A stretch of DNA of 64,000 nt from Begonia masoniana (lineage: Eukaryota; Streptophyta; Magnoliopsida; Cucurbitales; Begoniaceae), in contig CM039510.1 of assembly GCA_022432975.1 (NCBI GenBank), positions 34,583,677 to 34,647,676 on the forward strand, given 5' to 3'. Made by a program: the position numbers and the translations under genes. The number at the start of each line of letters is the position of its first letter. The stretch's first letter is position 1. Below the pieces are notes generated by a model, which was given only the letters and a program-made list of their open reading frames with translations, was not told the origin of the DNA and did not search any database. This document shows positions 3,411 through 40,300 of this stretch, piece by piece.

Positions 3411-3714
3411 ATCTTTGTAACACCTGAGAATTTTCTACAACATACGTAGGCCTTGGATTAGGCGGTTAAGGGAGTTTAATGTTTTATTTTGGGTTATGTT
3501 AGGTGTATAATTTTAAGAGTGAAATTGGAAGAGAAAGTTAAGAGGAAATCCTAGATTTAAGTGGTTAGAAATTTGGGGTTGAGTTGGTAATTAAAAGTGA
3601 ATACAATGGGAAGGATTTAGAAGTTTCCAACGTAGGAAGGAAGGAAGGAAGGAAGGAAAAGTAAGAGGTTGAAAAGTCAAAAAGGTGATAGGTTGAAAAT
3701 TCAAAGTTAGTGAT

Positions 3715-4044
3715 GAACCAATAGGAAACAAATAAAAAGCTAGTAAGTGTATGAAGATGTGGTAAGTGAAAGACAATTCATGTTGGAATTTAGGAGTGAA
3801 AGAAGATGTGGCTATTTTATAAAAATGAAAACTTAGTAGGAGAAAAATTAAAAGTGAAAAAGTAAAAATGGTTAAAGAGAAAAATCTCTTTCTTCTTCCT
3901 CATTCTTCCCACGATTTCTTCCTCCATAGCCGATTCTTCTCCCTCTCATTCCTTCAAGATTTCTTAAGTTTAAGGTATGAAATTAAATGGGTTTTTAATT
4001 TATATGTTTAGGTGATGGTTTTTGGTGTTTTTAGAGGATTTTGT
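3715..4044 (+). repeat. Direct duplication flanking GGAA array, copy 1
   Basis: This block (from GAACCAATAGGAAAC to GAGGATTTTGTA) recurs at 4550-4879 nearly unchanged. A short GGAA run (about 3636-3658) lies before copy 1 and the long array lies between the copies, which suggests that the duplication arose by recombination through the GGAA tract. Confidence 0.85.
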
Positions 4045-4546
4045 AGGAAGGAAGGAAGGAAGGAAGGAAGGAAGGAAGGAAGGAAGGAAGGAAGGAAGGA
4101 AGGAAGGAAGGAAGGAAGGAAGGAAGGAAGGAAGGAAGGAAGGAAGGAAGGAAGGAAGGAAGGAAGGAAGGAAGGAAGGAAGGAAGGAAGGAAGGAAGGA
4201 AGGAAGGAAGGAAGGAAGGAAGGAAGGAAGGAAGGAAGGAAGGAAGGAAGGAAGGAAGGAAGGAAGGAAGGAAGGAAGGAAGGAAGGAAGGAAGGAAGGA
4301 AGGAAGGAAGGAAGGAAGGAAGGAAGGAAGGAAGGAAGGAAGGAAGGAAGGAAGGAAGGAAGGAAGGAAGGAAGGAAGGAAGGAAGGAAGGAAGGAAGGA
4401 AGGAAGGAAGGAAGGAAGGAAGGAAGGAAGGAAGGAAGGAAGGAAGGAAGGAAGGAAGGAAGGAAGGAAGGAAGGAAGGAAGGAAGGAAGGAAGGAAGGA
4501 AGGAAGGAAGGAAGGAAGGAAGGAAGGAAGGAAGGAAGGAAGGAAG
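4045..4546. repeat. Perfect (GGAA)n microsatellite, about 125 copies
   Basis: About 502 bases of uninterrupted AGGA/GGAA. Open frames on both strands (a lysine-glutamate-glycine-arginine repeat on plus, a leucine-proline-serine-phenylalanine repeat on minus) are artefacts of a 4-bp repeat. It lies within the first predicted intron of the surrounding LTR. Its purity implies very recent expansion or an assembly-sensitive tract. Confidence 0.98.
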
Positions 4547-4549
4547 TAT

Positions 4550-4879
4550 GAACCAATAGGAAACAAATAAAAAGCTAGTAAGTGTATGAAGATGTGGTAA
4601 GTGAAAGACAATTCATGTTGGAATTTAGGAGTGAAAGAAGATGTGGCTATTTTATAAAAATGAAAACTTAGTAGGAGAAAAATTAAAAGTGAAAAAGTAA
4701 AAATGGTTAAAGAGAAAAATCTCTTTCTTCTTCCTCATTCTTCCCACGATTTCTTCCTCCATAGCCGATTCTTCTCCCTCTCATTCCTTCAAGATTTCTT
4801 AAGTTTAAGGTATGAAATTAAATGGGTTTTTAATTTTATATGTTTAGGTGATGGTTTTTGGTGTTTTTAGAGGATTTTT
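4550..4879 (+). repeat. Direct duplication flanking GGAA array, copy 2
   Basis: Second copy of the block at 3715-4044. It includes a second copy of LTR exon 1 and donor 1 (TTTAAG|GTATGA at 4809/4810). Downstream the LTR continues in normal order. Confidence 0.85.
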
Positions 4880-6021
4880 GTAGAGATTGATTAGGGTTTG
4901 GAAACCCTAGGAGTAGTTAAAGATTAAATGGATTAGCTTAGGTGGTTTATGGGGTTAGAATGGTGATTTTGTGGAAGATTGTGAAAAACTGGTTTTTAGA
5001 GCAAAGGGTGCCGGTTATGTTTTTGTATTTTCGACTTGGCCAATGTATTTGGTTGGTTAATTTAAGTGTTTCAATGGATAGTAGACGTGTAGAGGTTTAC
5101 AGATTGAGGTGGCACGTCAAAATCCATTGAAAAATGAGAAAGTTATGGCCGTTTGAAGTTGGACGTTAAAAATTGTAGTAAAAATCAGGTTTAGGGCTTT
5201 GAGGGTGACTTTATTTTAGGTGTTGTTTAGTTTTAGTTAGAACCTCCTTTAGAGTTTAGTAATGGCCTACTAAGTTACGTTTTCTTTATTTTAGGTCGTC
5301 GAGCTAGCGAAGTGATTTGACGAAGTAAGCAAACAATTACCGAGCAGTCAGGTAAGTAGTGGTTGCTATCCTTTCGCCTTCGGGCCTACACCATAGAATG
5401 GTATGGTTATTTATTTCGTGTTGTGTTGTGTTGTGTTGCATATTCGTTGACATGCATCATGGTTTTACACGAGTTTCTTGCATGGTTTGGTTGTGAGCGT
5501 GAAATGTAATCAGATAAAGTAAATTGAGAAATGCATCTTGATTAGTGTGCCTTGTCGGGATTATGTGCTGGAGTGTAGCACCCCAAGGGGACCTCTATGA
5601 AAGATAACCGGCTAAAATACGCAATCTTGATTAGTGTGCCTTGTCGGGATTACGTGTTGGAGTGTAACACCCCGGAGGGACCTCTATGAAGGATGACTGG
5701 CTAAAATACGTAAATGTCGAGAGTATGAATTCCTAGACGTTATAGGATTCTACGATCGACGAGGGAGATTATGTATGGCCATCCTAGACGGTTATGGGAT
5801 GAGTGCTATCTGGTCTTGCTCTGGTGGTTGTGTTAGACGGTTATAGGATGTGTGCCTACTCGATCCACACGGCTTATGAAATGATTAAAGCAACAAACGG
5901 CAAATAAGCACAACTGAGCGTCAGAAATTGCATTGTGTTAGGTTAGATTGCATTGTGTTGTTGCATTTGTTATTCCCTACTTTCTAAGCATTAGGCTTAC
6001 GCTTTGTGTTCTATGGTATAG
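4810..6021 (+). promoter_or_regulatory. Two-intron LTR leader cassette (LTR 3416-6846)
   Basis: Intron 1 4810-5294, microexon 5295-5351, intron 2 5352-6021. The stem-loop GCC-TTCG-GGC, a cUUCGg tetraloop, lies 24 nt after donor 2 and is followed by CTACA. The inverted motif TAAGC-ATTAG-GCTTA (5985-5999) precedes the TATAG|GTGA acceptor. Confidence 0.6.
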
Positions 6022-6851
6022 GTGACGAGGTATATACAGGTGAGGTTGAGTGCGAGGATCAGGACTAGGAGCAATCGGAGATCCACGGGGCACGCCGGTG
6101 CAGGCAGTTGTCGGGGCGCTTCGACCTGGTTCTCGAGATGTGTGGCTTGTGTTTGGGGTTTGATATTTTGTGGTTGTTTAACAAATTTGGTTTGGTGTAA
6201 ATATTTATTGTTTTGGCACAATTGTGAACTTGGGTTAGATGTTTTATATATATATATATTTACAGGTTTTTGGGTTTTGCAAATTATAGGTGCTATGCCA
6301 CTCGTTTTGGTTTTAAAATAAACCACGTCGAGCTATTTTCTCTATTTTTTTATTAACCGTTTTTAGTTGAATTTCCAAGATTTTTACGGGGCACGAAGTC
6401 GAGAGTATCAGGAATGTGTGGTTAAATTTTAAGGTAATTTGGAGGTGTTTGGCTCAAAGAAAAATGAAGAAAATTGAGGAAAAGATGAAAAGTGGGCGTT
6501 TTTGGCCGAAGAGACCCGAGGAGGCCCGATCGGTCGGGCGCTAGGTGCCAATCGATCGGCCACGGGGCGCGTAGGTGCAAACAAGCGCGTGCGCGGTGCC
6601 CAGCGAGCACCCAGCACCAATTTTTTTAAAAAATTGTTTTTAATTTCCTATTTCTACTATGTTTTAACTCGATATTTTTCGACATATTTTAACGTCTTTT
6701 GGCACGTTTTCCAACAAAAGTCGAGGGTTCGAGAAACTCGAAACCCAAGTCGAAAAATTTACGAAAATATTTTTAAACGTCGTTTCAAACACGGAATAGC
6801 TTAGCAAAGTAACGCACCGAGCCGAGGCAGGTTTGGGGGCGTTACAATCTT

Positions 6852-10538: not shown

Positions 10539-11172
10539 AGAGACACCTTAATGCTCACATGGGAATTTGTCTTCCCGAGCTTTAATATTTGTTGCTTTTT
10601 TTGAAATTTCAAACTTATTGGCAAACGTTGGCCTTCTTGTTTAAACTTTATTAGATGCATGTTAGGATTAGATGAATGATAGGATTAGTTGGTGGCTTGG
10701 TTTGGCCCATTGAAGTTGAAGACATGGCTCAAGCCCACATAGTGACCATCATTCCTCTTCCAAGTCCAAGTCCAAGTGTAACACCCGGCATTTTGCCATG
10801 TAAATGTTTTCCCCGATAATTTATGTGGGATTAAATAGGTATTAATGCAAGGAGTATTTTTGTCAGAAACCAAAACGACGGTGTTTGTAGAATTTAAATT
10901 GTGGAACAAAAACCAAACTAAGTGTGATTAAAATGAACCAATTTGGTTGTAAACCAATGAAAGGGCAAAGTTGGCACTCAATTAAGGTGGTTGGGAGTAG
11001 GCCATTGGTTGGTTGCCATGTGGCAACTTGTTGAAGAAGACAACCTTCTTCTCCTCTCCTCCTCACTCTACGTAAAAAACCTTCACTTCTCCTCTGTTTC
11101 CTCTCTGCCAGGCGACAAAAGTTCACCCAAACACCTTTGATCTTCTAGAGTTTTCCTTGTTTTCTGCCTAAG

Positions 11173-11926
11173 GTAAACATCTTCTAATGCTAACACATTT
11201 GGACAAGCAAAAAGTATGCGTTTTGCTGAAGTTTTAGGTTAAGGTATTTAGGAGAAAACTCTCGGTTTTTGTATGGAAACACACCCACTGTTTTCTAAAT
11301 GTCCGAGATGAGTTTGCTGCATATCCTGCAAACTTATTAGTTAACATATGCAGCTGTTTAATACATCTTCATGCATGCTACAGATCCGAGCATTTCAGGG
11401 GCAGTCGAGCATCTGACACGACAGCAAACAGGTAAGTTCATACGTTTATGTTGGCCCTTATGGCCCTACAACTTGGAGGTACTAGGTATGGTTTGGGTAG
11501 ATAGGTTCTAGGTTATGTTTTAAGTTAAACATGTCTCTGTTATATTCTGTTTCCCTGTTGTATCCATTCTGCCATCTGTGAATGTTAAGTATCGCACTTA
11601 TCCATGCATACACGTTTTCCAGTAAAATCATGCAAATGTTTTCAACACTGGTTTTGAAGTAAGTAAGATAAAATCTGTAATGAAATGTGCGGTTAAGTGT
11701 GGATGAGGACTGGCATCCTGTCAAGTACTCCTGTTATGTCCTGAAAGTGGCATGTACATCCTGTTGCGCCAGCTCCTCCTCCCACTTATACCTTCCTGTC
11801 CAGTGAAATGTAATGTAATGTAATGTTCCTGTATTTGAAACGTTCATGCATAGCATATGCATCACTGCATTTATTCTGATATGTTCTTACTGAGCTTTAG
11901 GCTCATAGGTGAACTCCCTGTTGTAG
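11173..11926 (+). promoter_or_regulatory. Two-intron LTR leader cassette (Tekay 5' LTR)
   Basis: Intron 1 11173-11383 (211 nt), microexon 11384-11431, intron 2 11432-11926 (495 nt). Everything lies upstream of the primer binding site, so splicing would shorten the leader without touching gag-pol. The splice use is inferred, not shown. Confidence 0.6.
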
Positions 11927-12499
11927 GTACGGATCCTGTGGATGAGGACTTGGTGCCTCAGGCCGAGGTGTAGGTTGCTGTTGGCGGATCGAGCTCTCAG
12001 GGTTGGTTGCTGCAGTCAGGCAAAATTCTGTATGGAAGTTTATGTCTTTAAAGTAAAGTTCATATTTGTAAACTTTTCTGGATGTTTGAGGTTCTGTTTT
12101 AAAACCCTGTTGTAGTCTTGTGTTTTATTTTGAAAGTTTTGTGGGAAATTTTGAAATGTATAAGTCCTGTTGTTGGTGTATTTTTAAACCTCTGTATTTG
12201 ACAGATTGTATCCATATATTTTAAATGTTTTGAAAACATTCTGGAACTGCTTGAGTTCTCCATTTTCAGGTCATGCATGGATAGTCTCAAATTTTAGAGC
12301 TATCCATGCAGTTTGTCTGCTCGAACTCCCGTCATTTGTAGAGTATGATTTCAAAACTTTGTTTCGGAATCGGGTTTGAGGGTCTGAAGCCCTTATGCCT
12401 CCTGTTTTGATGTTCCCTGCCTGTAAGTCTTTATGTTAAAATTTGCTAAGTTTGTCACAAATTTCATCTTCCGGTCACTATTCACAATTTTCGTCTTCC

Positions 12500-13095
12500 G
12501 GTTGACGTCAGCATAAGTCTTCCGCCCAGTTATAAATTTTGTCTTCCGGTTGACGTCAGCATAAGTCTTCCGCCCAGTTTATAACTTTGTCTTCCGGTTG
12601 ACGTCATCTTCTCTTCCGATGACGTCGGCATAAGTCTTCCGCCCAGTTATAAATTTTGTTTTCCGGTTGACGTCATCTTCTCTTCCGATGACGTCAGCAT
12701 AAGTCTTCCGCCCAGTTTATAACTTTGTCTTCCGGTTGACGTCATCTTCTCTTCCGATGACGTCAGCATAAGTCTTCCGCCCAGTTTATAACTTTGTCTT
12801 CCGGTTGACGTCATCTTCTCTTCCGATGACGTCGGCATAAGTCTTCCGCCCAGTTATAAATTTTGTCTTCCGGTTGACGTCATCTTCTCTTCCGATGACG
12901 TCAGCATAAGTCTTCCGCCCAGTTTATAACTTTGTCTTCCGGTTGACGTCATCTTCTCTTCCGATGACGTCGGCATAAGTCTTCCGCCCAGTTATAAATT
13001 TTGTCTTCCGGTTGACGTCATCTTCTCTTCCGATGACGTCAGCATAAGTCTTCCGCCCAGTTTATAACTTTGTCTTCCGATGACGTCAGAACGTC
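12500..13095. repeat. TGACGTCA tandem array in Tekay 5' LTR (short form)
   Basis: About ten units of two alternating kinds, roughly 48 bp and roughly 70 bp, built from GACGTCAGCATAAGTCTTCC, GCCCAGTTTATAACTTTG and, in the long kind, ATCTTCTCTTCCGATGACGT. Nearly every unit contains TGACGTCA or TGACGTCG. Open frames across it are repeat artefacts. Confidence 0.95.
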
Positions 13096-13473
13096 TTCCG
13101 GCTGACGTCATCATCTTCTGCCGGTTATGTTTGCTGCCTTTATCTTCCGATGACGTTATCCACTGATTTCTCCTCCGGTTCAGTGTGAAACTACATCTTC
13201 CGCCACTGTTTCCTGTTTCCATTCCCGCCAGTCTTATGCCTATTTCTGTTCGGTTATCTATTATTGAGATCTGTTTGTTTTCCATTCCAGAGAACTCTCT
13301 CCCCCTGCAAATGTTTTCGATTACTCACTGCAGTTCTCCCTCTCTGTTCACTGCTTTGACTGTTCTATTAGTTTAAAAAAAAAAATAATAGTCACCGTTT
13401 CCTGTAAATGTCCCGGAGTGACGGCTCCGATCCCGGAACCCGATTCGGATCCGGTTTCGGGCTGTCACAGTTA

Positions 13474-13485: not shown

Positions 13486-13636
13486 GACACGGTTTTAAAA
13501 TCGATTCTGTGAAATGTCTGACTGCGCAACCCGCCACGTGATATCGCTCCGCCAACTGTAAGTGTTTAAATTCCTGTAAAAGTTTGTTTATTAAATTAGG
13601 TTATTCTGTTATTCTACTTATAGGACTATCTTAGAA

Positions 13637-16600
13637 ATGGTGAGAGGACATCAGGAAGAGTCCAGTGAAAGCTCTCGAGCCATTGACCGACTAACCGAAC
13701 TGGTGGGTGCACAGTCACGTATGGTAGAGCGCATGATGGCTCGGGAAGATGATAGGAACAACAACCATGGGAACAACAATAATAATAATCCTGGAAATAA
13801 TGCACCGCGAGACAATAGTGGAGACAGATTTCGGCGACTTCAGCCACCCTCATTTGATGGGTTGTCTACAGACCTGACCCGTGCTGAAACCTGGATTCGA
13901 ACTATGGAAAAGATGTTCAGTTATGCAGAAGTAGAAGACAACAAGAAGGTTACTTGTGCCACGTTCCATCTCACTGAAAGTGCTGGATTCTTGTGGGATG
14001 CAGTACAATCGTCTACTGTGGCATTGAGTTGGGAGGGATTTAAAACACTCTTCTACGAGAAGTACTTTGACCGAGGAGTGAGAAAGGAAAAGTTACTTGA
14101 GTTTTCTCGGCTGCGACAGTATGGATCTGTGGCCGAGTATGTTCAGAAATTTGAGTCGCTATCCCGATATGCAACACACATGGTGGCCACTGATGAGAAC
14201 AAGGTGCACCAGTTTATTCAAGGTTTAAAGATGGACCTTCTGCGAGGAATCACGACTGGAGGTTTTGATGAGGCACCATATGTGAAAGTGGTGGCCAAGG
14301 CTTATCAACTTGAGGCCTTAGAAATAAAGTCCCAGAGACAGAGAGAGCCACCAAGAGGAATTATAAGAAATGCTCATCAACAACAACAACAAAAGATTCA
14401 GAATGTACATCCTCAACAGCAACAGAACAGGGGCACTAAAAGGCCCAATGAGACCCTTACTTACCAGGACAAAGGGAAGAGACCTATGGGAGCTCCTCAG
14501 CTTCCTGTCTGCTCACGTTGCCAGAAGAATCATACAGGAGAATGCAGACTCTTCACTGGAGCTTGTTTCCGATGTGGCCAAGTAGGTCATCAAATTCGAA
14601 ATTGTCCAATACCCGACACCAGAACAGGACAGGCTGTGCCAAGAGTGTTTGCAATGATGGAGGACGTTGATGATGCTGATCAGCACACAGCAATTACAGG
14701 TACAATTTCAGTATGTGATGTGCCTGCTTATACCTTGTGGGACACGGGGGCCACACATTCGTTTGTGGCCATGGATTTTGTAGTTAGACAGAAGTTTTGT
14801 AGTACGTCCTCAGATCAACCCTACAGCGTTATGCTACCGTCCGGAGAGCTTATGCACTCCGAGCGGGTTGTACGGGGTGATATAGTGTCAGTGGGAGACC
14901 AGAAATTTTATGCCGATCTTATCGTCATCGGTATGAAAGGGTACGATGTCATTCTGGGGATGGACTGGCTATTTAGGCATTATGCCACCATCAACTGTAG
15001 GTCCGGGCTTGTGTCATTTAAGCGCCCAAATGAAGTAGAATTCTCCTATCAGGCAGTACCGAAGAAACACCGTATGCCTGTGATATCTTCCTTGAAAGCT
15101 CAACGACTGATGAAGTCAGGGTGCATTGGATTTCTTGCCCACGTTGTGGATGTTCGAAGGCAAAATGAGGTGGAACTTCAAAACATTCCGGTAGTCCGGG
15201 ACTTCTTAGAGGTTTTCTTAGATGACTTACCGGGATTGCCACCTGATCGTGACATCGAGTTTGAAATCGATGTGTATCCTGGTGCGGAACCAGTATCGAA
15301 GAATCCGTACCGTATGGCACCAATTGAACTGAAGGAGTTGAAGGCTCAGTTGAAAGAATTAATGGACAAGGGTTTTGTGCGCCCTAGTTTCTCTCCGTGG
15401 GGTGCTCCCGTCTTGTTTGTCAAGAAGAAGGATGGGTCCCTACGGATGTGTATTGACTACCGTGAGCTGAATAAGTTGACTATCAAGAATAAGTACCCGT
15501 TGCCAAGAATTGACGATTTGTTTGATCAGCTACAGGGGGCTCGGGTATTTTCTAAGATTGACTTACGCTCCGGCTATTACCAGTTGAAGGTCAGAGCTGA
15601 AGATATTCCAAAGACTGCCTTCAGAACCCGGTACGGACACTATGAGTTCTTGGTGATGTCGTTCGGGTTGACTAATGCTCCGGCAGCATTTATGGACCTA
15701 ATGAACAGGATATTCCATGATGTCTTGGATAAATTTGTGATCGTTTTCATCGACGACATTTTGGTTTATTCCAGGAGTGTGGCCGAGCATGAGAAACACT
15801 TGGCTATGGTACTGTCAATCCTGAAGCAACACCAATTATATGCCAAGCTGTCAAAGTGTGAGTTCTGGTTAAGCAAGATTAATTTCTTGGGCCACGTGGT
15901 GTCTGCTGAAGGAGTATCTGTGGACCCGGCCAAGATTCAGGCTGTAAGGGATTGTCCCAGGCCGAGAAATGCAAGTGAAGTACGGAGCTTTATCGGACTA
16001 GCTGGTTATTACAGGAAATTCATCAAGGGGTTTTCTGTGATAGCGAAGCCTATGACCAGCTTAACAAGGAAGGAAATCAAGTTCAAGTGGTCTGAAGCAT
16101 GTGAGGTGAGCTTTCAGACACTCAAGCAAAAGTTGACCACTGCTCCTCTGTTGATATTGCCAGTTGAAGATGGCAAATTCAGCGTATACTGTGATGCGTC
16201 AAAAGTTGGCTTGGGATGTGTACTGATGCAAGAAGGGAAGGTGGTAGCATACGCATCCCGACAATTGAAGACCCATGAGGAAAACTACCCTACTCACGAC
16301 CTTGAGTTAGCGGCAGTTGTGTTTGCGCTGAAAGTATGGAGACATCATTTGTACGGACAATCATGTGAGGTGTTTTCGGATCACAAAAGCTTGAAGTACA
16401 TATTTACTCAGAAGGAGTTGAATATGAGGCAAAGGCGGTGGTTAGAATTTGTAAAAGACTATGATGTTGAGATCAAGTACCATCCTGGTAAAGCTAATGT
16501 GGTAGCTGATGCACTGAGCAGAATGCCAGCTACTATGCAACCAGTAATATCGGCCGTATCGACGCCTTTGAGGACGGAGATACAGAAGTTCGATATGGAG

Positions 16601-17179
16601 ATAGTTTCTGGGCTATCGGCCATACTAGCAGACTTAACCCTACGGCCCACCGTCCTGGACCGTATTAAGGAAGCCCAGAAGACCAATTCAAAGGAGATGG
16701 CTGATATGGTGAGCAGAGTACCAAGGGCTTCTTCCGATTTTAGTTATTCGGGAGATGGAATTTTGAAGTTTAAGAACAGATGGTATGTTCCGAAAGACGA
16801 AGAACTACGGAAACACATCTTATCGGAAGCCCATTCGTCTCCTTTCTCTGTACATCCCGGAAGTACGAAGATGTATCAGGACCTAAAGCTTCACTTCTGG
16901 TGGCCGAATATGAAGAATGAAGTGGCCAAGTATGTGGAGTCTTGTTTAATATGTCAACAGGTCAAAGCTGAACATCAACGACCGATTGGAACGCTTCAGC
17001 CTCTTCCAATTCCTGAATGGAAGTGGGAGAACATTACAATGGACTTTGTTGTTGGACTTCCAAGAACAGTAAAAGGCCATAATAGTATATGGGTCATAGT
17101 GGACAGATTGACGAAGTCTGCCCATTCTCTATGTGAAGACGACATTCACCGTGGACCAGTATGCAGAACTGTACATTAA
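13637..17179 (+). pseudogene. Tekay gag-pol polyprotein, open through RNaseH, broken in integrase
   Basis: A single frame of 1180 codons. Gag occupies residues about 1-290 with [11 protein letters not shown] near 57. Two zinc fingers follow ([12 protein letters not shown] and [14 protein letters not shown], about 290-325). Protease has [10 protein letters not shown] near 365. RT starts about 560 with the catalytic FIDDILVYS near 704. RNaseH has [10 protein letters not shown] near 850 and SDHKSLKYI near 915. The integrase HHCC finger (CLICQQ) lies near 1105 and the first acidic residue (TMDFVVGLP) near 1134. The frame is lost at about 17130 and stops at 17179. The ATG was chosen because it follows the primer site by 150 bp and no upstream start is in frame. 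Such polyproteins form particles and copy element RNA in the cytoplasm. This copy is otherwise well preserved, so gag, protease and RT could still be made. Confidence 0.93.
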
Positions 17180-18201: not shown

Positions 18202-18596
18202 TGTAACACCCGGCATTTTGCCATGTAAATGTTTTCCCCGATAATTTATGTGGGATTAAATAGGTATTAATGCAAGGAGTATTTTTGTCAGAAACCAAAA
18301 CGACGGTGTTTGTAGAATTTAAATTGTGGAACAAAAACCAAACTAAGTGTGATTAAAATGAACCAATTTGGTTGTAAACCAATGAAAGGGCAAAGTTGGC
18401 ACTCAATTAAGGTGGTTGGGAGTAGGCCATTGGTTGGTTGCCATGTGGCAACTTGTTGAAGAAGACAACCTTCTTCTCCTCTCCTCCTCACTCTACGTAA
18501 AAACCTTCACTTCTCCTCTGTTTCCTCTCTGCCAGGCGACAAAAGTTCACCCAAACACCTTTGATCTTCTAGAGTTTTCCTTGTTTTCTGCCTAAG

Positions 18597-19350
18597 GTAA
18601 ACATCTTCTAATGCTAACACATTTGGACAAGCAAAAAGTATGCGTTTTGCTGAAGTTTTAGGTTAAGGTATTTAGGAGAAAACTCTCGGTTTTTGTATGG
18701 AAACACACCCACTGTTTTCTAAATGTCCGAGATGAGTTTGCTGCATATCCTGCAAACTTATTAGTTAACATATGCAGCTGTTTAATACATCTTCATGCAT
18801 GCTACAGATCCGAGCATTTCAGGGGCAGTCGAGCATCTGACACGACAGCAAACAGGTAAGTTCATACGTTTATGTTGGCCCTTATGGCCCTACAACTTGG
18901 AGGTACTAGGTATGGTTTGGGTAGATAGGTTCTAGGTTATGTTTTAAGTTAAACATGTCTCTGTTATATTCTGTTTCCCTGTTGTATCCATTCTGCCATC
19001 TGTGAATGTTAAGTATCGCACTTATCCATGCATACACGTTTTCCAGTAAAATCATGCAAATGTTTTCAACACTGGTTTTGAAGTAAGTAAGATAAAATCT
19101 GTAATGAAATGTGCGGTTAAGTGTGGATGAGGACTGGCATCCTGTCAAGTACTCCTGTTATGTCCTGAAAGTGGCATGTACATCCTGTTGCGCCAGCTCC
19201 TCCTCCCACTTATACCTTCCTGTCCAGTGAAATGTAATGTAATGTAATGTTCCTGTATTTGAAACGTTCATGCATAGCATATGCATCACTGCATTTATTC
19301 TGATATGTTCTTACTGAGCTTTAGGCTCATAGGTGAACTCCCTGTTGTAG
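18597..19350 (+). promoter_or_regulatory. Two-intron LTR leader cassette (Tekay 3' LTR)
   Basis: Exact counterpart of 11173-11926, with all four splice motifs and the hairpin unchanged. Confidence 0.6.
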
Positions 19351-19917
19351 GTACGGATCCTGTGGATGAGGACTTGGTGCCTCAGGCCGAGGTGTAGGTT
19401 GCTGTTGGCGGATCGAGCTCTCAGGGTTGGTTGCTGCAGTCAGGCAAAATTCTGTATGGAAGTTTATGTCTTTAAAGTAAAGTTCATATTTGTAAACTTT
19501 TCTGGATGTTTGAGGTTCTGTTTTAAAACCCTGTTGTAGTCTTGTGTTTTATTTTGAAAGTTTTGTGGGAAATTTTGAAATGTATAAGTCCTGTTGTTGG
19601 TGTATTTTTAAACCTCTGTATTTGACAGATTGTATCCATATATTTTAAATGTTTTGAAAACATTCTGGAACTGCTTGAGTTCTCCATTTTCAGGTCATGC
19701 ATGGATAGTCTCAAATTTTAGAGCTATCCATGCAGTTTGTCTGCTCGAACTCCCGTCATTTGTAGAGTATGATTTCAAAACTTTGTTTCGGAATCGGGTT
19801 TGAGGGTCTGAAGCCCTTATGCCTCCTGTTTTGATGTTCCCTGCCTGTAAGTCTTTATGTTAAAATTTGCTAAGTTTGTCACAAATTTCATCTTCCGGTC
19901 ACTATTCACAATTTTCG

Positions 19918-22530
19918 TCTTCCGGTTGACGTCAGCATAAGTCTTCCGTCCAGTTATAAATTTTGTCTTCCGGTTGACGTCAGCATAAGTCTTCCGCCCA
20001 GTTTATAACTTTGTCTTCCGGTGACGTCATCTCTCGACGTCATCTTCTCTTCCGATGACGTCGGCATAAGTCTTCCGCCCAGTTATAAATTTTGTCTTCC
20101 GGTTGACGTCATCTTCTCTTCCGATGACGTCAGCATAAGTCTTCCGCCCAGTTTATAACTTTGTCTTCCGGTTGACGTCATCTTCTCTTCCGATGACGTC
20201 GGCATAAGTCTTCCGCCCAGTTTATAACTTTGTCTTCCGTTGACGTCATCTTCTCTTCTCTTCCGATGACGTCAGCATAAGTCTTCCGCCCAGTTTATAA
20301 CTTTGTCTTCCGTTGACGTCATCTTCTCTTCCGATGACGTCGGCATAAGTCTTCCGCCCAGTTATAAATTTTGTCTTCCGGTTGACGTCATCTTCTCTTC
20401 CGATGACGTCGGCATAAGTCTTCCGCCCAGTTATAAATTTTGTCTTCCGGTTGACGTCAGCATAAGTCTTCCGCCCAGTTTATAACTTTGTCTTCCGGTT
20501 GACGTCATCTTCTCTTCCGATGACGTCAGCATAAGTCTTCCGCCCATTTTATAACTTTGTCTTCCGGTTGACGTCATCTTCTCTTCCGATGACGTCAGCA
20601 TAAGTCTTCCGCCCAGTTTATAACTTTGTCTTCCGGTTGACGTCAGCATAAGTCTTCCGCCCAGTTATAAATTTTGTCTTCCGTTGACGTCATCTTCTCT
20701 TCCGATGACGTCAGCATAAGTCTTCCGCCCAGTTTATAACTTTGTCTTCCGGTTGACGTCAGCATAAGTCTTCCGCCCAGTTATAAATTTTGTCTTCCGG
20801 TTGACGTCAGCATAAGTCTTCCGCCCAGTTATAAATTTTGTCTTCCGGTTGACGTCATCTTCTCTTCCGATGACGTCGGCATAAGTCTTCCGCCCAGTTT
20901 ATAACTTTGTCTTCCGGTTGACGTCAGCATAAGTCTTCCGCCCAGTTATAAATTTTGTCTTCCGTTGACGTCATCTTCTCTTCCGATGACGTCAGCATAA
21001 GTCTTCCGCCCAGTTTATAACTTTGTCTTCCGTTGACGTCATCTTCTCTTCCGATGACGTCGGCATAAGTCTTCCGCCCAGTTTATAACTTTGTCTTCCG
21101 GTTGACGTCAGCATAAGTCTTCCGCCCAGTTATAAATTTTGTCTTCCGGTTGACGTCAGCATAAGTCTTCCGCCCAGTTATAAATTTTGTCTTCCGGTTG
21201 ACGTCAGCATAAGTCTTCCGCCCAGTTTATAACTTTGTCTTCCGATGACGTCGGCATAAGTCTTCCGCCCAGTTTATAACTTTGTCTTCCGTTGACGTCA
21301 TCTTCTCTTCCGATGACGTCAGCATAAGTCTTCCGCCCAGTTATAAATTTTGTCTTCCGTTGACGTCATCTTCTCTTCCGATGACGTCAGCATAAGTCTT
21401 CCGCCCAGTTTATAACTTTGTCTTCCGGTTGACGTCAGCATAAGTCTTCCGCCCAGTTATAAATTTTGTCTTCCGGTTGACGTCAGCATAAGTCTTCCGC
21501 CCAGTTATAAATTTTGTCTTCCGGTTGACGTCAGCATAAGTCTTCCGCCCAGTTATAAATTTTGTCTTCCGGTTGACGTCATCTTCTCTTCCGATGACGT
21601 CAGCATAAGTCTTCCGCCCAGTTTATAACTTTGTCTTCCGGTTGACGTCAGCATAAGTCTTCCGCCCAGTTTATAACTTTGTCTTCCGTTGACGTCATCT
21701 TCTCTTCCGATGACGTCAGCATAAGTCTTCCGCCCAGTTTATAACTTTGTCTTCCGTTGACGTCATCTTCTCTTCCGATGACGTCGGCATAAGTCTTCCG
21801 CCCAGTTTATAACTTTGTCTTCCGTTGACGTCATCTTCTCTTCCGATGACGTCGGCATAAGTCTTCCGCCCATTTTATAACTTTGTCTTCCGTTGACGTC
21901 ATCTTCTCTTCCGATGACGTCAGCATAAGTCTTCCGCCCAGTTTATAACTTTGTCTTCCGTTGACGTCATCTTCTCTTCCGATGACGTCAGCATAAGTCT
22001 TCCGCCCAGTTATAAATTTTGTCTTCCGGTTGACGTCAGCATAAGTCTTCCGCCCATTTTATAACTTTGTCTTCCGTTGACGTCATCTTCTCTTCCGATG
22101 ACGTCGGCATAAGTCTTCCGCCCAGTTTATAACTTTGTCTTCCGGTTGACGTCATCTTCTCTTCCGATGACGTCGGCATAAGTCTTCCGCCCAGTTTATA
22201 ACTTTGTCTTCCGGTTGACGTCATCTTCTCTTCCGATGACGTCAGCATAAGTCTTCCGCCCAGTTATAAATTTTGTCTTCCGGTTGACGTCAGCATAAGT
22301 CTTCCGCCCAGTTATAAATTTTGTCTTCCGTTGACGTCATCTTCTCTTCCGATGACGTCGGCATAAGTCTTCCGCCCAGTTTATAACTTTGTCTTCCGGT
22401 TGACGTCAGCATAAGTCTTCCGCCCAGTTTATAACTTTGTCTTCCGGTTGACGTCAGCATAAGTCTTCCGCCCAGTTTATAACTTTGTCTTCCGTTGACG
22501 TCATCTCTCTTCCGATGACGTCAGCATAAG
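19918..22530. repeat. TGACGTCA tandem array in Tekay 3' LTR (long form)
   Basis: Roughly 45 units of the same 48-bp and 70-bp kinds as at 12500-13095, in irregular order, with small internal deletions (for example CCGTTGACG for CCGGTTGACG). The palindrome TGACGTCA recurs in almost every unit, giving many dozens of candidate bZIP sites in one LTR. Confidence 0.96.
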
Positions 22531-22709
22531 TCTTCCCCCTGCAAATGTTTTCGATTACTCACTGCAGTTCTCCCTCTCTGTTCACTGCTTTGACTGTTCT
22601 ATTAGTTTAAAAAAAAAAAATAATAGTCACCGTTTCCTGTAAATGTCCCGGAGTGACGGCTCCGATCCCGGAACCCGATTCGGATCCGGTTTCGGGCTGT
22701 CACACCAAG

Positions 22710-32459: not shown

Positions 32460-33606
32460 TGTAACACTCGAAAAAATTTCTACAACATGCGTAGCCTTTA
32501 GATAGATTATGTTATAAGGGTTTGAGGGTTTAGCATATATTCTAGGGTTATGCTAAGTTTAGGAGGTAAAAAGTGAAGTTTGGAGAGTAAATCAATAGAG
32601 TTGGTAATGGTTAGAGTTATAGTTGGTTGAGTTAATTAAAGTAAAGGAAATTTGTAAAAGAGAGAGGAGAAGAGTGTGATGCCCCACGTAGGAAGTATAG
32701 AAAAGAAAGTTTGAAGGGTTGGAAAAATCAAAAGTTAAAAGGGATAAAGTGTAGAGAAAAGTGGAAAGTGAGGTTTGAATTGGTCAAACCTTGTGATTTG
32801 AGAAAGATGAGAAAAATGGGGGATGTGGGGTGTCTTCCACGTTGGAAGGAATAAAGGTGGGGAAGAGGGTAATTTTTATAATTTTATTTAGTTGAGTGGT
32901 TTATTTTTAAAAGTGGAAAAAGTTAGATTGTAAAGGTAATAGAAATTCAAGGTTAAAAAGGCAAAAAAGGGTTGTCTTCCTCACCCTTTCTCCACGATTT
33001 TTACAGCAGCAAGAAGAGGGCTCTCCCTCCACTTCCTCTTCAATTTTCTTCAAGATTTGAGGTTAGTACTTGATGGGTTTTATTTTGTATGAATAATAGT
33101 GGAGTTTGTTGATGTTTTTGGTGACATTTGTGAAGTTTTGAAGGAGTTTGAAAAACCCTAGGTGGGGATTTCGAAATTATGTTTTCTCTTGATGTATTTT
33201 CTTGCCAATTTGATGTTTTAAGCATTCAATAGGTTCGTTTAGGGTGTTTAGACAATTAAATTGAAGAATGGATGGAAGTTGGAGAAAAACCGATTTTGGG
33301 AACATTGATGGCCGATTCTGTTTTGGTGTTTTCGGTCTTGGAAAATTGTTTGGTTGCCAAATTTGAGTGTTTCAATGGATAGTAGACGTGTTGAGGTTTA
33401 TGGAATGAGGTGGCACATCAAAATCCGTTGAAAATCAATGGAGTTTTGGTCGTTTAAAGTTTAGACACTGAAAATGTGGGAAAAATCGGATTTTAGAGGT
33501 TTTGAAACTTTAAATGGGTTAAAGTGATTAGTTTTGGTTTAGGTAATTCTTTAGAATTTATTAGGTTGGTACTAAGTGAGTTTTGATTGTATTTGTTAGG
33601 TTGACA
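32460..33606 (+). mobile_element. 5' LTR of family A element, first part
   Basis: TGTAACACTCG to the TGACA duplication. Donor 1 TTTGAG|GTTAGT lies at 33062, acceptor 1 ends at 33599. The nested insertion entered 7 bases into the microexon, after GTTGACA. A CT-rich region with CTCACCCTTTCTCC at 32978 probably marks the leader start. Confidence 0.88.
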
Positions 33607-34867
33607 TGTAACGCCCCGAGTTATCTGAACCCGGTTCGTTACACAAAAGTTCGTACATGACTAAGAGATCTCAACCGTATTATTTTTTTTTTTAAACTTT
33701 GCTCAATATTCAACATTTGACATAAGCTAAAGTCTCAAAACATTTAAAACTTGCAATGGAAATCTTTTGGACAACAATAGAGTTAAACAAAACTATAAAC
33801 ATTGTTTGAAATGTAAGAGATAAACGGCTAAAAAGAAATAGAGGTTTGAATCGTGAAATACTTGGGAAATCGCAGAAGTCAAACGCATCTGCCGATGGAT
33901 AAAGTCAACGGAAGAAGCAGAAACAGCAAATAGAAGGCTTCTACCGATGACGTGGACCAGAAAAGTTGAAAACAAAAGACATCTCTCGGTGGACTGCATC
34001 TACCGATAACGTCAGCCGGATAAATCAATTATCCAACATCAACCGATCGCAAAACGACAAAGCATAATACTCACTCGTACCAGTAGTGCAAAATCTACAT
34101 CTTCCGATAGAAATAAACCTACATCATCCGATGGCTTTTCTGAAGACATCTTCCGATAGAATTAAACCTACATCATCCGATGGCTTTTCTGAAGACATCT
34201 TCCGATAGAAAACAGAGCGACATTTCAACTATTTCTTGCTATGCAAGCACAACTCTAAGTACAGAAAAGAATTTACTGATTTCACCACAACCATTCAAAA
34301 ACAATTCAAATCATTGCATTACTCAAGTCCAGTATAATCCAGTGTTAAAAACCAACGGAATACTATTATCAGAAAAGTCTCAAAGTACTTTTTGAAAACA
34401 TCAAGGCAACTTCTATCATCAGAAAGTTTAACATACTCAAATTGAAATCACTGTCCACTAAACCTTCACAACCACTGACACCAGTTAAACTGTGACAGCC
34501 CGAAACCGGATCCGAATCGGGTTCCGGGATCGGAGCCGTCACTCCGGGACATTTACAGGAAACGGTGACTATTATTTTTTTTTTTTAAACTAATAGAACA
34601 GTCAAAGCAGTGAACAGAGAGGGAGAACTGCAGTGAGTAATCGAAAACATTTGCAGGGGGAGAGAGTTCTCTGGAATGGAAAACAAACAGATCTCAATGA
34701 TAGATAACCGAACAGAAATAGGCATAAGACTGGCGGGAATGGAAACAGGAAACAGTGGCGGAAGATGTAGTTTCACACTGAACCGGAGGAGAAATCAGTG
34801 GATAACGTCATCGGAAGATAAAGGCAGCAAACATAACCGGCAGAAGATGATGACGTCAGCCGGAAGA

Positions 34868-37395
34868 CGCTTATGCCGACGTCATCGGAAGACAAAGTTA
34901 TAAACTGGGCGGAAGACTTATGCTGACGTCATCGGAAGAGAAGATGACGTCAACCGGAAGACAAAATTTATAACTGGGCGGAAGACTTATGCCGACGTCA
35001 TCGGAAGAGAAGATGACGTCAACCGGAAGACAAGTTATAAACTGGGCGGAAGACTTATGCTGACGTCATCGGAAGAGAAGATGACGTCACCGGAAGACAA
35101 AATTTATAACTGGGCGGAAGACTTATGCCGACGTCATCGGAAGAGAAGATGACGTCAACCGGAAGACAAAGTTATAAACTGGGCGGAAGACTTATGCTGA
35201 CGTCATCGGAAGAGAAGATGACGTCAACCGGAAGACAAAGTTATAAACTGGCGGAAGACTTATGCCGACGTCATCGGAAGAGAAGATGACGTCAACCGGA
35301 AGACAAAATTTATAACTGGGCGGAAGACTTATGCCGACGTCATCGGAAGAGAGATGACGTCAACCGGAAGACAAAGTTATAAACTGGCGGAAGACTTATG
35401 CTGACGTCAACCGGAAGACAAAGTTATAAACTGGGCGGAAGACTTATGCTGACGTCAACCGGAAGACAAAATTTATAACTGGGCGGAAGACTTATGCTGA
35501 CGTCAACCGGAAGACAAAATTTATAACTGGGCGGAAGACTTATGCTGACGTCATCGGAAGACAAAGTTATAAACTGGGCGGAAGACTTATGCCGACGTCA
35601 TCGGAAGAGAAGATGACGTCAACCGGAAGACAAAATTTATAACTGGGCGGAAGACTTATGCTGACGTCATCGAAGAGAAGATGACGTCAACCGGAAGACA
35701 AAGTTATAAACTGGGCGGAAGACTTATGCTGACGTCATCGGAAGAGAGATGACGTCAACCGGAAGACAAAGTTATAAACTGGGCGGAAGACTTATGCTGA
35801 CGTCAACCGGAAGACAAAATTTATAACTGGGCGGAAGACTTATGCTGACGTCAACCGGAAGACAAAGTTATAAACTGGGCGGAAGACTTATGCTGACGTC
35901 ATCGAAGAGAAGATGACGTCAACCGGAAGACAAAATTTATAACTGGGCGGAAGACTTATGCTGACGTCAACCGGAAGACAAAGTTATAAACTGGCGGAAG
36001 ACTTATGCCGACGTCATCGGAAGAGAAGATGACGTCAACCGGAAGACAAAATTTATAACTGGGCGGAAGACTTATGCTGACGTCAACCGGAAGACAAAAT
36101 TTATAACTGGGCGGAAGACTTATGCTGACGTCAACCGGAAGACAAAGTTATAAACTGGGCGGAAGACTTATGCTGACGTCAACCGGAAGACAAAGTTATA
36201 AACTGGGCGGAAGACTTATGCTGACGTCATCGAAGAGAAGATGACGTCAACCGGAAGACAAAATTTATAACTGGGCGGAAGACTTATGCTGACGTCAACC
36301 GGAAGACAAAATTTATAACTGGGCGGAAGACTTATGCTGACGTCAACCGGAAGACAAAATTTATAACTGGGCGGAAGACTTATGCCGACGTCATCGGAAG
36401 AGAAGATGACGTCAACCGGAAGACAAAATTTATAACTGGGCGGAAGACTTATGCTGACGTCAACCGGAAGACAAAGTTATAAACTGGGCGGAAGACTTAT
36501 GCTGACGTCAACCGGAAGACAAAATTTATAACTGGGCGGAAGACTTATGCTGACGTCAACCGGAAGACAAAATTTATAACTGGGCGGAAGACTTATGCTG
36601 ACGTCAACCGGAAGACAAAATTTATAACTGGGCGGAAGACTTATGCTGACGTCAACCGGAAGACAAAATTTATAACTGGGCGGAAGACTTATGCTGACGT
36701 CATCGAAGAGAAGATGACGTCAACCGGAAGACAAAGTTATAAACTGGGCGGAAGACTTATGCTGACGTCAACCGGAAGACAAAATTTATAACTGGGCGGA
36801 AGACTTATGCCGACGTCATCGGAAGAGAAGATGACGTCAACCGGAAGACAAAGTTATAAACTGGGCGGAAGACTTATGCCGACGTCATCGGAAGAGAAGA
36901 TGACGTCAACCGGAAGACAAAATTTATAACTGGGCGGAAGACTTATGCCGACGTCATCGGAAGAGAAGATGACGTCAACCGGAAGACAAAATTTATAACT
37001 GGGCGGAAGACTTATGCTGACGTCAACCGGAAGACAAAGTTATAAACTGGGCGGAAGACTTATGCTGACGTCATCGGAAGAGAAGATGACGTCAACCGGA
37101 AGACAAAGTTATAAACTGGGCGGAAGACTTATGCTGACGTCAACCGGAAGACAAAGTTATAAACTGGGCGGAAGACTTATGCTGACGTCATCGGAAGAGA
37201 AGATGACGTCAACCGGAAGACAAAATTTATAACTGGGCGGAAGACTTATGCCGACGTCATCGGAAGAGAAGATGACGTCAACCGGAAGACAAAGTTATAA
37301 ACTGGGCGGAAGACTTATGCTGACGTCAACCGGAAGACAAAATTTATAACTGGGCGGAAGACTTATGCTATGCTGACGTTCACCGGAAGACGAAA
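34868..37395. repeat. TGACGTCA tandem array in solo LTR, main block
   Basis: About 45 units of the 48-bp and 70-bp kinds, inverted relative to the Tekay copy. Unit variants (CATCGAAGAG for CATCGGAAGAG, AGAGAGATG for AGAGAAGATG) are shared by scattered units, a sign of local homogenisation. Confidence 0.96.
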
Positions 37396-37544
37396 ATTGT
37401 GAATAGTGACCGGAAGATGAAATTTGTGACAAACTTAGCAAATTTTTAACATAAAGGACTTACAGGCAGGGAACATCAAAACAGGAGGCATAAGGGCTTC
37501 AGACCCTCAAACCGATTCCGAAACAAAGTTTTGAAATCATACTC

Positions 37545-38050
37545 AACCGGAAGACAAAGTTATAAACTGGGCGGAAGACTTATGCTGACGTCAACCGGAA
37601 GACAAAATTTATAACTGGGCGGAAGACTTATGCTGACGTCAACCGGAAGACAAAGTTATAAACTGGGCGGAAGACTTATGCCGACGTCATCGGAAGAGAA
37701 GATGACGTCAACCGGAAGACAAAGTTATAAACTGGGCGGAAGACTTATGCTGACGTCAACCGGAAGACAAAATTTATAACTGGGCGGAAGACTTATGCCG
37801 ACGTCATCGGAAGAGAAGATGACGTCAACCGGAAGACAAAATTTATAACTGGGCGGAAGACTTATGCTGACGTCATCGGAAGAGAAGATGACGTCAACGG
37901 AAGACAAAGTTATAAACTGGGCGGAAGACTTATGCCGACGTCATCGGAAGAGAAGATGACGTCAACCGGAAGACAAAGTTATAAACTGGGCGGAAGACTT
38001 ATGCTGACGTCATCGGAAGAGAAGATGACGTCAACCGGAAGACAAAGTTA
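37545..38050. repeat. Second, displaced TGACGTCA array block
   Basis: About nine units inserted where the other LTRs have a roughly 280-bp unique segment (12070-12345). Array-to-unique junctions are at ATCATACTC/AACCGGAAGAC and AAGTTACAAATATG. Confidence 0.9.
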
Positions 38051-38192
38051 CAAATATGAACTTTACTTTAAAGACATAAACTTCCATACAGAATTTTGCC
38101 TGACTGCAGCAACCAACCCTGAGAGCTCGATCCGCCAACAGCAACCTACACCTCGGCCTGAGGCACCAAGTCCTCATCCACAGGATCCGTAC

Positions 38193-38948: not shown

Positions 38949-39444
38949 CTTAGGCAGAAAACAAGGAAAACTCTAGAAGATCAAAGGTGTTTGGGTGAAC
39001 TTTTGTCGCCTGGCAGAGAGGAAACAGAGGAGAAGTGAAGGTTTTTACGTAGAGTGAGGAGGAGAGGAGAAGAAGGTTGTCTTCTTCAACAAGTTGCCAC
39101 ATGGCAACCAACCAATGGCCTACTCCCAACCACCTTAATTGAGTGCCAACTTTGCCCTTTCATTGGTTTACAACCAAATTGGTTCATTTTAATCACACTT
39201 AGTTTGGTTTTTGTTCCACAATTTAAATTCTACAAACACCGTCGTTTTGGTTTCTGACAAAAATACTCCTTGCATTAATACCTATTTAATCCCACATAAA
39301 TTATCGGGGAAAACATTTACATGGCAAAATGCCGGGTGTTACATAAACTGCCCCATCAGATGCCAGATCGATGCCTGATTGCACCCCTCCAACCTGCCTA
39401 GTCCTCAACATATTCAGAGAATTCACCTGCAGTATCCTCAACAC

Positions 39445-40024: not shown

Positions 40025-40300
40025 CTAAGTCGAAGGAGAATCGGGCGAGGAAAATCGCCTAGAGAGCTCGACTGCTTGAGCTGAAAACCCGAAGAGAAAA
40101 GTATGAAATGGTGGCGGCTACAGTGCATTAAATCCAATCCCTCTTTCCTTAAATACGTTATCCACTTTTAAAAATACAATTTACTCTAATGCCCTTGTCT
40201 AGTCTAATCATTCAATAACCCTACTTAAATTATTTGTTAATAAAGTGTATACCATTAATAATAAGAGAGCCGGTTCGATAGAACCGGGTGTTACATGACA

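What the first reader, a model, noticed from the sequence alone, without database searches (positions are those of the whole stretch)
10777..13469. Conserved two-intron spliced leader with a covarying stem-loop inside Tekay-type LTRs
Seen directly: all eleven large LTRs here (3416, 10777, 18202, 32460, 42771, 47677, 52205 on plus; 34491, 33607, 52106, 51182 on minus), from five subfamilies with little overall similarity, share one order of signals. These are AG|GT donor, intron, (C/T)AG acceptor, microexon (57 nt in family A and C, 48 in Tekay, 50-51 in D, 42 in E), a near-consensus AG|GTAAGT donor, 20-30 nt, a hairpin, CCTACA or CTACA, then a TGTAG|GT acceptor. The hairpin covaries: GCC-TTCG-GGC, GCC-TTCG-GGT (G-U pair), GGCC-CTTAT-GGCC, GGCT-GATA-AGCC. 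Upstream of the last acceptor is a second inverted motif (TAAGC-ATTAG-GCTTA or GAGC-TTTAG-GCTC). Inference: the leader is spliced inside the LTR, before the primer site. Spliced RNA would serve translation while unspliced RNA is needed as genome, because a spliced template would delete the introns from the LTRs. That no intron-less LTR is seen suggests selection or packaging of unspliced RNA, perhaps through the hairpin. I know of introns in other plant retroelements (Ogre), but not of this arrangement.
Basis: partly seen in the sequence, partly recalled or inferred. Interest (0 to 1): 0.88.

Follow-up and report, generated by a model that had tools for sequence, protein, structure and literature searches.

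The report
Retroelement intron locks its splice sites
The long terminal repeats of these plant retrotransposons carry two introns, and the second can fold so that its two ends pair with, and so could hide, its own splice sites, which would let one transcript serve either as messenger or as intact genome copy.

Summary
All 11 LTRs share the order of signals; copy 42771 has lost both intron-2 splice sites. Genomic footprints indicate that intron 1 is spliced: copies with intron 1 exactly joined out exist in two families (A: 21 of 22 hits, against 802 with it; F: 22 pattern hits against 1,285). So "no intron-less LTR" is wrong. Joined exon 2-exon 3 gave 0 hits in A, A-prime, F and D, against 1,413 (A) and 2,147 (F) intact donors.

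P0 pairs the 5' splice site with the stretch before the branch-point-like motif. P2 pairs CCTACA and the next 9 nt with the 3' splice site, AG|G included. Over 24 distinct rows 86.3% of cells pair (slid 31-47%); 80 cells changed on both sides against 34.8 shuffled, 0 of 500. Both splice sites can thus be masked. Best reading: a lock that keeps part of the RNA unspliced as genome. No RNA data: intron-2 splicing and the lock's direction are inferred.

The parts
10777..13469 (+). LTR A1 (5' LTR of the element 10777-22704; 5-bp target-site duplication CCAAG; tRNA-Met-type primer site at 13473)
11173..11383 (+). intron 1 of A1 (AAG|GTAAAC ... CTACAG|AT); the matching stretch is exactly missing in 21 genomic LTR copies
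11384..11431 (+). microexon (exon 2), 48 nt
11432..11926 (+). intron 2 of A1 (GTAAGT ... TTGTAG), 495 nt
11432..11443 (+). P0 5' strand = 5' splice site +1..+12
11453..11465 (+).
11465..11479 (+). P2 5' strand (anti-acceptor, CCTACAACTTGGAGG)
11879..11890 (+). P0 3' strand (anti-donor, ends ..CTTAC before the branch-point-like motif)
11891..11905 (+).
11913..11927 (+). P2 3' strand = 3' splice site, last 14 intron bases plus first exon base
18202..22704 (+). LTR A2 (3' LTR), introns 18597-18807 and 18856-19350; P2 18889-18903 with 19337-19351
34491..39343 (-). LTR A3 (solo, duplication GTTTA), introns 38948-38738 and 38689-38193; P2 38656-38642 with 38206-38192
33607..40295 (-). LTR E (interrupted by A3): intron 1 40024-39810, exon 2 39809-39760, intron 2 39759-39445; P2 15 of 15 paired, 39731-39717 with 39458-39444; P0 39759-39748 with 39492-39481
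52106..56976 (-). LTR F (interrupted by C3): intron 1 56706-56488, exon 2 56487-56437 (51 nt), intron 2 56436-55950; P2 15 of 15 paired, 56408-56394 with 55963-55949
51182..58600 (-).
3416..6846 (+). LTR C2: exon 2 5295-5351 (read by eye), intron 2 5352-6021 (acceptor TATAG); P2 5385-5399 with 6008-6022
52205..54930 (+). LTR C3: intron 1 52695-53422, exon 2 53423-53479, intron 2 53480-54273; P2 15 of 15 paired, 53511-53525 with 54260-54274
42771..45256 (+). LTR C1: intron-2 region 43961-44409 with both splice sites mutated; helix arms still pair 14 of 15
32460..41781 (+). LTR D1 (interrupted by E inside the microexon): intron 2 40351-40983; P2 40385-40399 with 40970-40984
47677..50307 (+). LTR D2: intron 2 48873-49505; P2 48907-48921 with 49492-49506
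13595..17179 (+). gag-pol open frame of element A (gag, protease, RT, RNase H, integrase zinc finger)

Best explanation
The LTRs of these Tekay-like Ty3/gypsy retrotransposons (clade not tested) encode a leader with two GT-AG introns. Intron 1 is an ordinary intron; RNAs spliced at it have been reverse transcribed and have founded recently active intron-1-less lineages (shown by genomic footprint). Intron 2 is a structured, self-locking intron. Its 5' splice site pairs with an anti-donor (..ACTTAC in many copies) just before the branch-point-like motif (P0). Its 3' splice site, AG|G included, pairs with an anti-acceptor (CCTACA..) about 33 nt after the donor (P2). Hairpins P1 and P3 bridge the short gaps. 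P0 and P2 cross, so they form a pseudoknot or are two alternative states. Helices and covariation: shown. That the locked form blocks U1, U2 and U2AF and keeps a share of RNA unspliced, so that an RNA with intact LTR sequence is left for reverse transcription while unlocked RNA becomes spliced mRNA: inferred.
For: P2 pairs in 11 of 11 window copies (12-15 of 15 positions); over the 8 distinct types, permuting partners reaches the observed pairing in 45 of 20,000. With relatives: 17 distinct types, positions 7-15 (outside the motifs used to find them) 121 of 153 paired, 0 of 50,000 permutations. P0 positions 7-12, 22 distinct types: 92 of 132 paired, 0 of 20,000. Both helices on 24 distinct rows: 86.3% paired (shuffled 74.4%, slides 31-47%), 80 cells changed on both sides against 34.8, 0 of 500 each. 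Own-family arms fit better than cross-family arms for A, G, E and F. P0 starts at the first intron base and P2 ends on the first base of exon 3. A P2-like helix is missing from intron 1 in 4 of 5 copies, and P0-like pairing there is weak, -4.1 to -7.8 against -7.9 to -14.1 kcal in intron 2. Unconstrained folding places P2 in the best fold of 5 of 7 introns at 37 C. G has a local hairpin over donor 2. Intron-1 loss: 21 copies (A) and 22 pattern hits (F); intron-2 loss: 0 in A, A-prime, F and D.
Against: No RNA reads: splicing of intron 2 is inferred from signals only. The 43 intron-1-less copies may stem from as few as two events, so the contrast with intron 2 is strong by copies (A alone: Fisher 6.5e-10) but not by independent events (one event against 802, none against 3,560: p = 0.18). 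Joins differing at more than 3 bases from the patterns would be missed; D has no denominator. P2 is not in the best fold of A1 or, at 37 C, of C2. Own arms are not the best match for C1 and C2, whose acceptors are mutated. C3's intron 1 has a P2-like match of -19.8 kcal near its donor. In A, P0 and P2 each carry a 2x2 mismatch; the outer ends fray (P0 position 12 pairs in 9 of 24 rows, P2 position 15 in 12 of 24). The number of pairs with two-sided change (13 of 27) and of further pair types (36) does not exceed shuffles (175 and 309 of 500). The rows are related, so shuffles overstate significance; with one copy per major family the true pairing is the best of 24 permutations in each of four choices, the least p possible with four. 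Exon 3 is not ATG-poor.
Confidence: 0.6

Rival explanations
1. Tether: P0 and P2 bring the ends of intron 2 together and promote its splicing, replacing the missing polypyrimidine tract.
For: The helices join the two ends of the intron and leave the branch-point-like A and hairpin P3 between them; by eye no clear pyrimidine tract lies before acceptor 2.
Against: P0 covers GTAAGT itself and P2 covers the AG itself, so both would have to open before use; G covers its donor with a further local hairpin. No intron-2-less copies were found, which is not what efficient splicing predicts.
Confidence: 0.2
2. Genome-RNA structure: the pseudoknot is mainly a packaging, dimerisation or reverse-transcription element of the unspliced RNA, and the overlap with splice sites is how the element tells genome from message.
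For: It lies in the part of the leader that splicing would remove; young intron-1-less elements of family A keep it.
Against: The helices stop at the splice junctions; no packaging data of any kind.
Confidence: 0.12
3. Intron 2 is never spliced; the conserved signals are binding sites or relics inside a structured leader.
For: 0 genomic footprints of intron-2 removal in A, A-prime, F and D.
Against: Near-perfect donor and acceptor kept across the families sampled (24 distinct rows; rows were picked by these motifs); exon/intron contrasts in GC and ATG content for exon 2.
Confidence: 0.08
4. Exons 1 to 3 encode a small protein that is read only after splicing.
For: Microexons of 48, 51, 57 and 42 nt are multiples of three (E has 50); an open frame with a stop at the same place runs across exon 3 in A, C2, D2, E, F and G.
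Against: No ATG in the open frame of the seven copies joined, C3's downstream of its lost stop apart; in A a TAA closes the frame at the end of exon 1; two frames of exon 3 score alike and third positions are hardly more variable.
Confidence: 0.03
5. The helices are chance or shared ancestry.
For: The rows are related and positions 1-6 of each helix are fixed by splice-site-like motifs.
Against: 80 cells changed on both sides against 34.8 in shuffles, 0 of 500; slid registers fall to 31-47% paired; 0 of 50,000 and 0 of 20,000 permutations for the positions outside the motifs.
Confidence: 0.02

Closest known systems
[quoted passage not shown]
   Same: A plant LTR retrotransposon whose RNA is only partly spliced (PMC6317226, passages read)
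   Different: That intron lies inside the coding region and joins two frames; here two introns lie in the untranslated LTR before the primer site, and one carries a covarying lock
EVADE (EVD) and other short GAG RNAs made by splicing and early termination
   Same: Splicing separates a message from the full genomic RNA (PMC12786077 and PMC7730604, passages read)
   Different: Described there as splicing that yields subgenomic, Gag-coding RNAs; no LTR introns or splice-site-pairing helices appear in the passages
Maize CRM4TR cDNAs (tandem repeats derived from a centromeric chromovirus)
   Same: Three full-length cDNAs lack most of the UTR and one has a further splice in the LTR (PMC3648361, passages read)
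   Different: Splicing seen in a tandem-repeat derivative; no two-intron plan, structure or intron-less LTRs described in the passages
Retroviral leaders (HIV-1 major splice donor with the packaging signal beside it; weak or structured 3' splice sites); recalled
   Same: The unspliced genome is kept by making splicing inefficient, and genome-only RNA structure lies behind the donor
   Different: No known case recalled in which an intron pairs both its 5' and 3' splice site with its own opposite ends inside an LTR
Dscam docking/selector pairs and yeast intron-end pairing; recalled
   Same: Long-range pairing inside an intron governs splicing
   Different: As recalled, those pairings bring sites near without covering the donor GT and acceptor AG
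C. elegans Cer1, whose spliced RNA encodes a protein needed to export the unspliced RNA
   Same: One element balances spliced and unspliced RNA (PMC12786077, passage read)
   Different: Works through a protein; here no coding signal was found in the exons

Membership tests
Tekay/Del clade of Ty3/gypsy chromoviruses | gag, protease, RT, RNase H and integrase of gypsy type | tested here: met
   Pfam gag, RVP_2, RVT_1, RNase H, Integrase_H2C2 in 13595-17179; element A only
Tekay/Del clade of Ty3/gypsy chromoviruses | chromodomain at the integrase C terminus | tested here: inconclusive
   Chromo E 6e-4, 20.1 bits, below the curated 25.1, in 17670-18158
Tekay/Del clade of Ty3/gypsy chromoviruses | place inside the Tekay clade in a tree of RT or integrase | not tested
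   no clade reference set was built; the RT stretch matched 7,994 scored proteins, and of the best 120 listed those with an organism name are plant proteins
Spliceosomal GT-AG intron (intron 1) | GT-AG ends and precise absence in related copies | tested here: met
   21 copies in A lack exactly the predicted stretch; 22 pattern hits in F, not read beyond the matched bases
Spliceosomal GT-AG intron (intron 1) | junction-spanning RNA reads | not testable with these tools
   no RNA data held
Spliceosomal GT-AG intron (intron 2) | GT-AG ends and branch-point-like motif | tested here: met
   not in C1
Spliceosomal GT-AG intron (intron 2) | genomic footprint of removal | tested here: not met
   0 joined exon 2-exon 3 copies in A, A-prime, F and D; RNA not testable
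Ogre-type intron-bearing element | intron between protease and RT frames | tested here: not met
   protease to integrase zinc finger lie in one open frame 13595-17179; introns lie in the LTR
Covarying long-range RNA structure | more compensatory change than shuffled or slid registers | tested here: met
   cells changed on both sides, covariation score and cells paired: 0 of 500 shuffles; the counts of pairs and pair types do not exceed shuffles
Rfam-described RNA family | match at the gathering score | tested here: not met
   only 5S rRNA (twice) and snoR71 in the window

The most novel reading that the evidence does not exclude
A pseudoknotted double lock in the LTR intron pairs both splice sites with antisense copies of themselves carried at the opposite end of the same intron. 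It acts as an RNA-fate switch: closed RNA is the genome, open RNA is the message. It has been kept by covariation across divergent families of a plant retrotransposon clade, while the unlocked neighbour, intron 1, has been lost in at least two families through reverse transcription of spliced RNA.
Probability: 0.45. Interest if true: 0.92.

Novelty: new variant of a known kind. Interest (0 to 1): 0.85.

Why it matters
A retroelement that splices inside its own LTR risks erasing the introns at each round of copying. These elements show a contrast in one genome: intron 1 does get erased, intron 2 has not been seen erased, and intron 2 carries helices that cover its splice sites. That makes the old question of how one transcript is divided between genome and message directly testable in plants, for LTR families with more than a thousand copies each in this genome. 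A 2025 review says that plant LTR elements generally lack introns, with Ogre and EVADE as exceptions (PMC12786077, passage read).

Tried and rejected
Coding exons: microexon lengths divisible by three and a shared stop in exon 3 looked promising, but there is no ATG at the head of the open frame, frame A is closed, and codon positions show no clear signal (in one search the starts of C1 and C2 were misplaced, mended). Hairpin 1 by itself as proof of covariation: too short in the TTCG families; my structure string for it was out of register, so its poor score says nothing. Relatives in viral contigs: none. Rfam: no family. Literature: ten searches listed no report, by title or abstract start, of introns within Tekay LTRs or of such helices; full texts were not read through, only passages of PMC7730604, PMC12786077, PMC6317226 and PMC3648361, and a term search of PMC3059260 that found none of its terms. 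The library lacks most subscription papers.

Dropped or doubled rows: the 48-copy scan left out loci L001-L008 (near-copies of A1) and any copy whose donor or acceptor failed the pattern, so C1, L011, L012 and L020; 6 of the 20 stretches fetched (L031-L035, L048) gave no hit. Some places were fetched twice (L013-L015, L019-L021 and L029 lie in the stretches L041-L047), so 48 counts sightings and the distinct types (17, 22, 24) are the sounder numbers. The same double counting touches the 46 exon-3 starts (45 with acceptor, 1 with TGTAA, 0 without intron). L027, one of the 22 junction-1 hits in A, has intron 1 and a changed acceptor and is not counted.
Full report
What is there. The window is 64 kb of a 795-Mb genome in 308 contigs, a plant by its contents and by the proteins its RT resembles, and holds many nested LTR retrotransposons. 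Element A (10777-22704) has LTRs 10777-13469 and 18202-22704, duplication CCAAG, a tRNA-Met-type primer site, and one open frame with gag, protease, RT, RNase H and integrase zinc finger; a second frame holds an integrase C-terminal domain and a weak chromodomain. I call the other LTRs A3 (34491-39343 minus), E (33607-40295 minus), F (52106-56976 minus), G (minus, through 58079-57079; ends not verified), C1 (42771), C2 (3416), C3 (52205), D1 (32460) and D2 (47677).

Donor 1, microexon, donor 2, hairpin, CCTACA and acceptor 2 are in all eleven, with C1 having lost both intron-2 sites and D2 reading TTTACA. Of 13 AGGTAAGT in the window, 10 are donor 2 of these LTRs and one is donor 1 of E. In five copies exons 1 and 2 are richer in GC than the introns (0.44-0.68 against 0.33-0.45) and nearly free of ATG: 3 in 933 nt against 134 in 4,421 nt (binomial 2.8e-8; the start of exon 1 was set by eye). 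Exon 3 is not ATG-poor (80 in 3,423 nt).

Footprints of splicing in the genome. A spliced intron should leave copies that lack exactly it, if spliced RNA is ever reverse transcribed. For family A the joined exon 1-exon 2 sequence, up to three mismatches, occurs 22 times and its reversed control never; 21 are LTRs of a subfamily (A-prime) with intron 1 exactly absent, the last (L027) is not. In these 21 donor 2 is present in 21, the acceptor motif was found in 20 (not L020) and CCTACAAC in 19 (not L011 and L012). The unspliced exon 1|intron 1 form occurs 802 times. For family F the join occurs 22 times, 19 of them with at most two mismatches, in several sequence variants, the unspliced form 1,285 times. 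The F copies could not be fetched. In 2 of the 15 on contigs C1-C8 a donor 2 lies at exactly the expected 52 bases (to which I gave 8 of the 22 places and 2 donors; the rest compared by eye with the list, which shows only 100 exact matches of 2,147); for the other copies intron 2 was not seen. Eleven neighbouring pairs of intron-1-less places, over both families, are 6.3-6.9 kb apart, as two LTRs of one element would be. Four A-prime pairs are 99.4-99.8% identical over about 1.77 kb, so these elements moved recently.

The joined exon 2-exon 3 sequence was not found: A 0, A-prime 0, F 0, D 0, against 1,413 donors and 2,960 acceptors in A and 2,147 donors in F (no count for D). A join differing by more than three bases would have been missed. 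By copies the contrast is overwhelming in A (Fisher 6.5e-10); by independent events it is not (one event against none gives 0.18).

The lock. CCTACA, right behind hairpin 1, is the reverse complement of the acceptor TGTAG|G, and the match runs on, family by family: CCTACATCACAAAAC with GTTTTGTGATGTAG|G in E and F, CCTACACCATGGAAC with GTTCTGTGGTGTAG|G in C3, CCTACAAC with GTTGTAG|G in A. This helix (P2) pairs in 11 of 11 window copies at 12 to 15 of 15 positions, with own arms better than cross-family arms for A, G, E and F, not for C1 and C2, whose acceptors are mutated. In 6 of 9 copies no other window of the same LTR fits the arm better than the acceptor; in F 1, in D2 3 and in A1 18 windows do. 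A second helix (P0) pairs the donor, +1 to +12, with the stretch that ends in CTT(A/G/T)C just before the branch-point-like motif; for 4 of 5 introns tested this is the donor's best partner in the whole intron, for G nine windows are better.

With relatives from 200 kb of the same genome and from the fetched loci, P2 positions 7-15 pair in 121 of 153 cells (0 of 50,000 permutations) and P0 positions 7-12 in 92 of 132 (0 of 20,000); positions 1-6 are largely fixed by the motifs used in the scan and say little. On 24 distinct rows both helices together give 86.3% paired cells (shuffled 74.4%, slid 31-47%), 80 cells changed on both sides (shuffled 34.8) and a covariation score of 0.353 (shuffled 0.163), 0 of 500 each; the number of pairs with two-sided change (13 of 27) and of further pair types (36) does not exceed shuffles (175 and 309 of 500). 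The rows are related, so these are not probabilities. Hairpin P3 keeps 30 of 30 cells over six types, but under the loose best-loop rule 8% of random places also reach 5 of 5. Hairpin P1 is a GC-rich stem with free loops, convincing in A and the G clade, weak as a 3-bp TTCG stem elsewhere.

Intron 1 has no such pair of helices in the five copies tested. The best partner of its 3' splice site is weak and lies elsewhere in four; in C3 a -19.8 kcal match lies near the donor. Pairing of its donor with its 3' end is -4.1 to -7.8 kcal, against -7.9 (G), -8.7 (A1) and -13.6 to -14.1 (E, F, C3) in intron 2.

How it most likely works. The order is P0a (donor), P1, P2a, intron body, P0b, branch point, P3, P2b (acceptor); intron 2 is 315-794 nt long in the window. 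P0 and P2 cross. Closed, they cover the donor, abut the branch point and cover the acceptor AG, so splicing of intron 2 should be held back. A plain fold without pseudoknots puts P2 into the best structure of E, F, G, C3 and D1 at 37 C, not of A1 or C2. Closed RNA would keep intron 2 and thus an intact LTR for reverse transcription; open RNA would be spliced. Steps shown: the helices, their covariation, the precise loss of intron 1. Steps inferred: splicing of intron 2, the direction of the effect, the link to genome fate.

Compared with what is known. Plant LTR elements are described as generally lacking introns, with Ogre and EVADE as exceptions (PMC12786077, passage); Ogre's intron lies between its coding regions (PMC6317226, passage). 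Maize CRM4TR cDNAs show splicing in UTR and LTR (PMC3648361, passages). My searches listed no report of introns in Tekay LTRs or of an intron that pairs both its splice sites with its own ends. It works like a retroviral leader, in which unspliced genome is spared by hampered splicing (recalled), with a device that I have not seen described.

Noticed in passing
window 6943-8378: Short repeats beginning TGTAACGA with 5S rRNA matches on the minus strand (7467-7576, 8075-8187) and tRNA-Met-type primer sites: this looks like the Cassandra type of small LTR element (name recalled).
   Followed up: partly
window 8522-8628: Plant snoRNA R71 match, plus strand.
   Followed up: no
window 12482-13217, 19910-22540, 34880-38060: The A LTRs carry 69- and 48-base tandem repeats downstream of exon 3 that differ in number: the 5' and 3' LTR of one element differ by 1.8 kb in length though the first 2.26 kb align at 98.6%.
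   Followed up: no
window 57630-57660 minus; L037, L038, L041, L050: In G a local hairpin over donor 2 (GGTAAGTT..GACTTACT) adds a further cover of the 5' splice site (fold); similar sequence behind donor 2 was seen by eye in L037, L038, L041 and L050.
   Followed up: partly
window 11927-11973 and counterparts: Exon 3 has an open frame ending at the same stop in several families, acid-rich, without a starting ATG; perhaps only purine-rich splicing-enhancer-like sequence.
   Followed up: yes
window 4045-4546: A tandem array with 8-base period inside LTR C2, upstream of its exon 1.
   Followed up: no
window 17100-17700: The integrase region of element A is not in one frame: the open frame ends at 17179 and further integrase C-terminal sequence lies in another frame at 17670-18161.
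   Followed up: no
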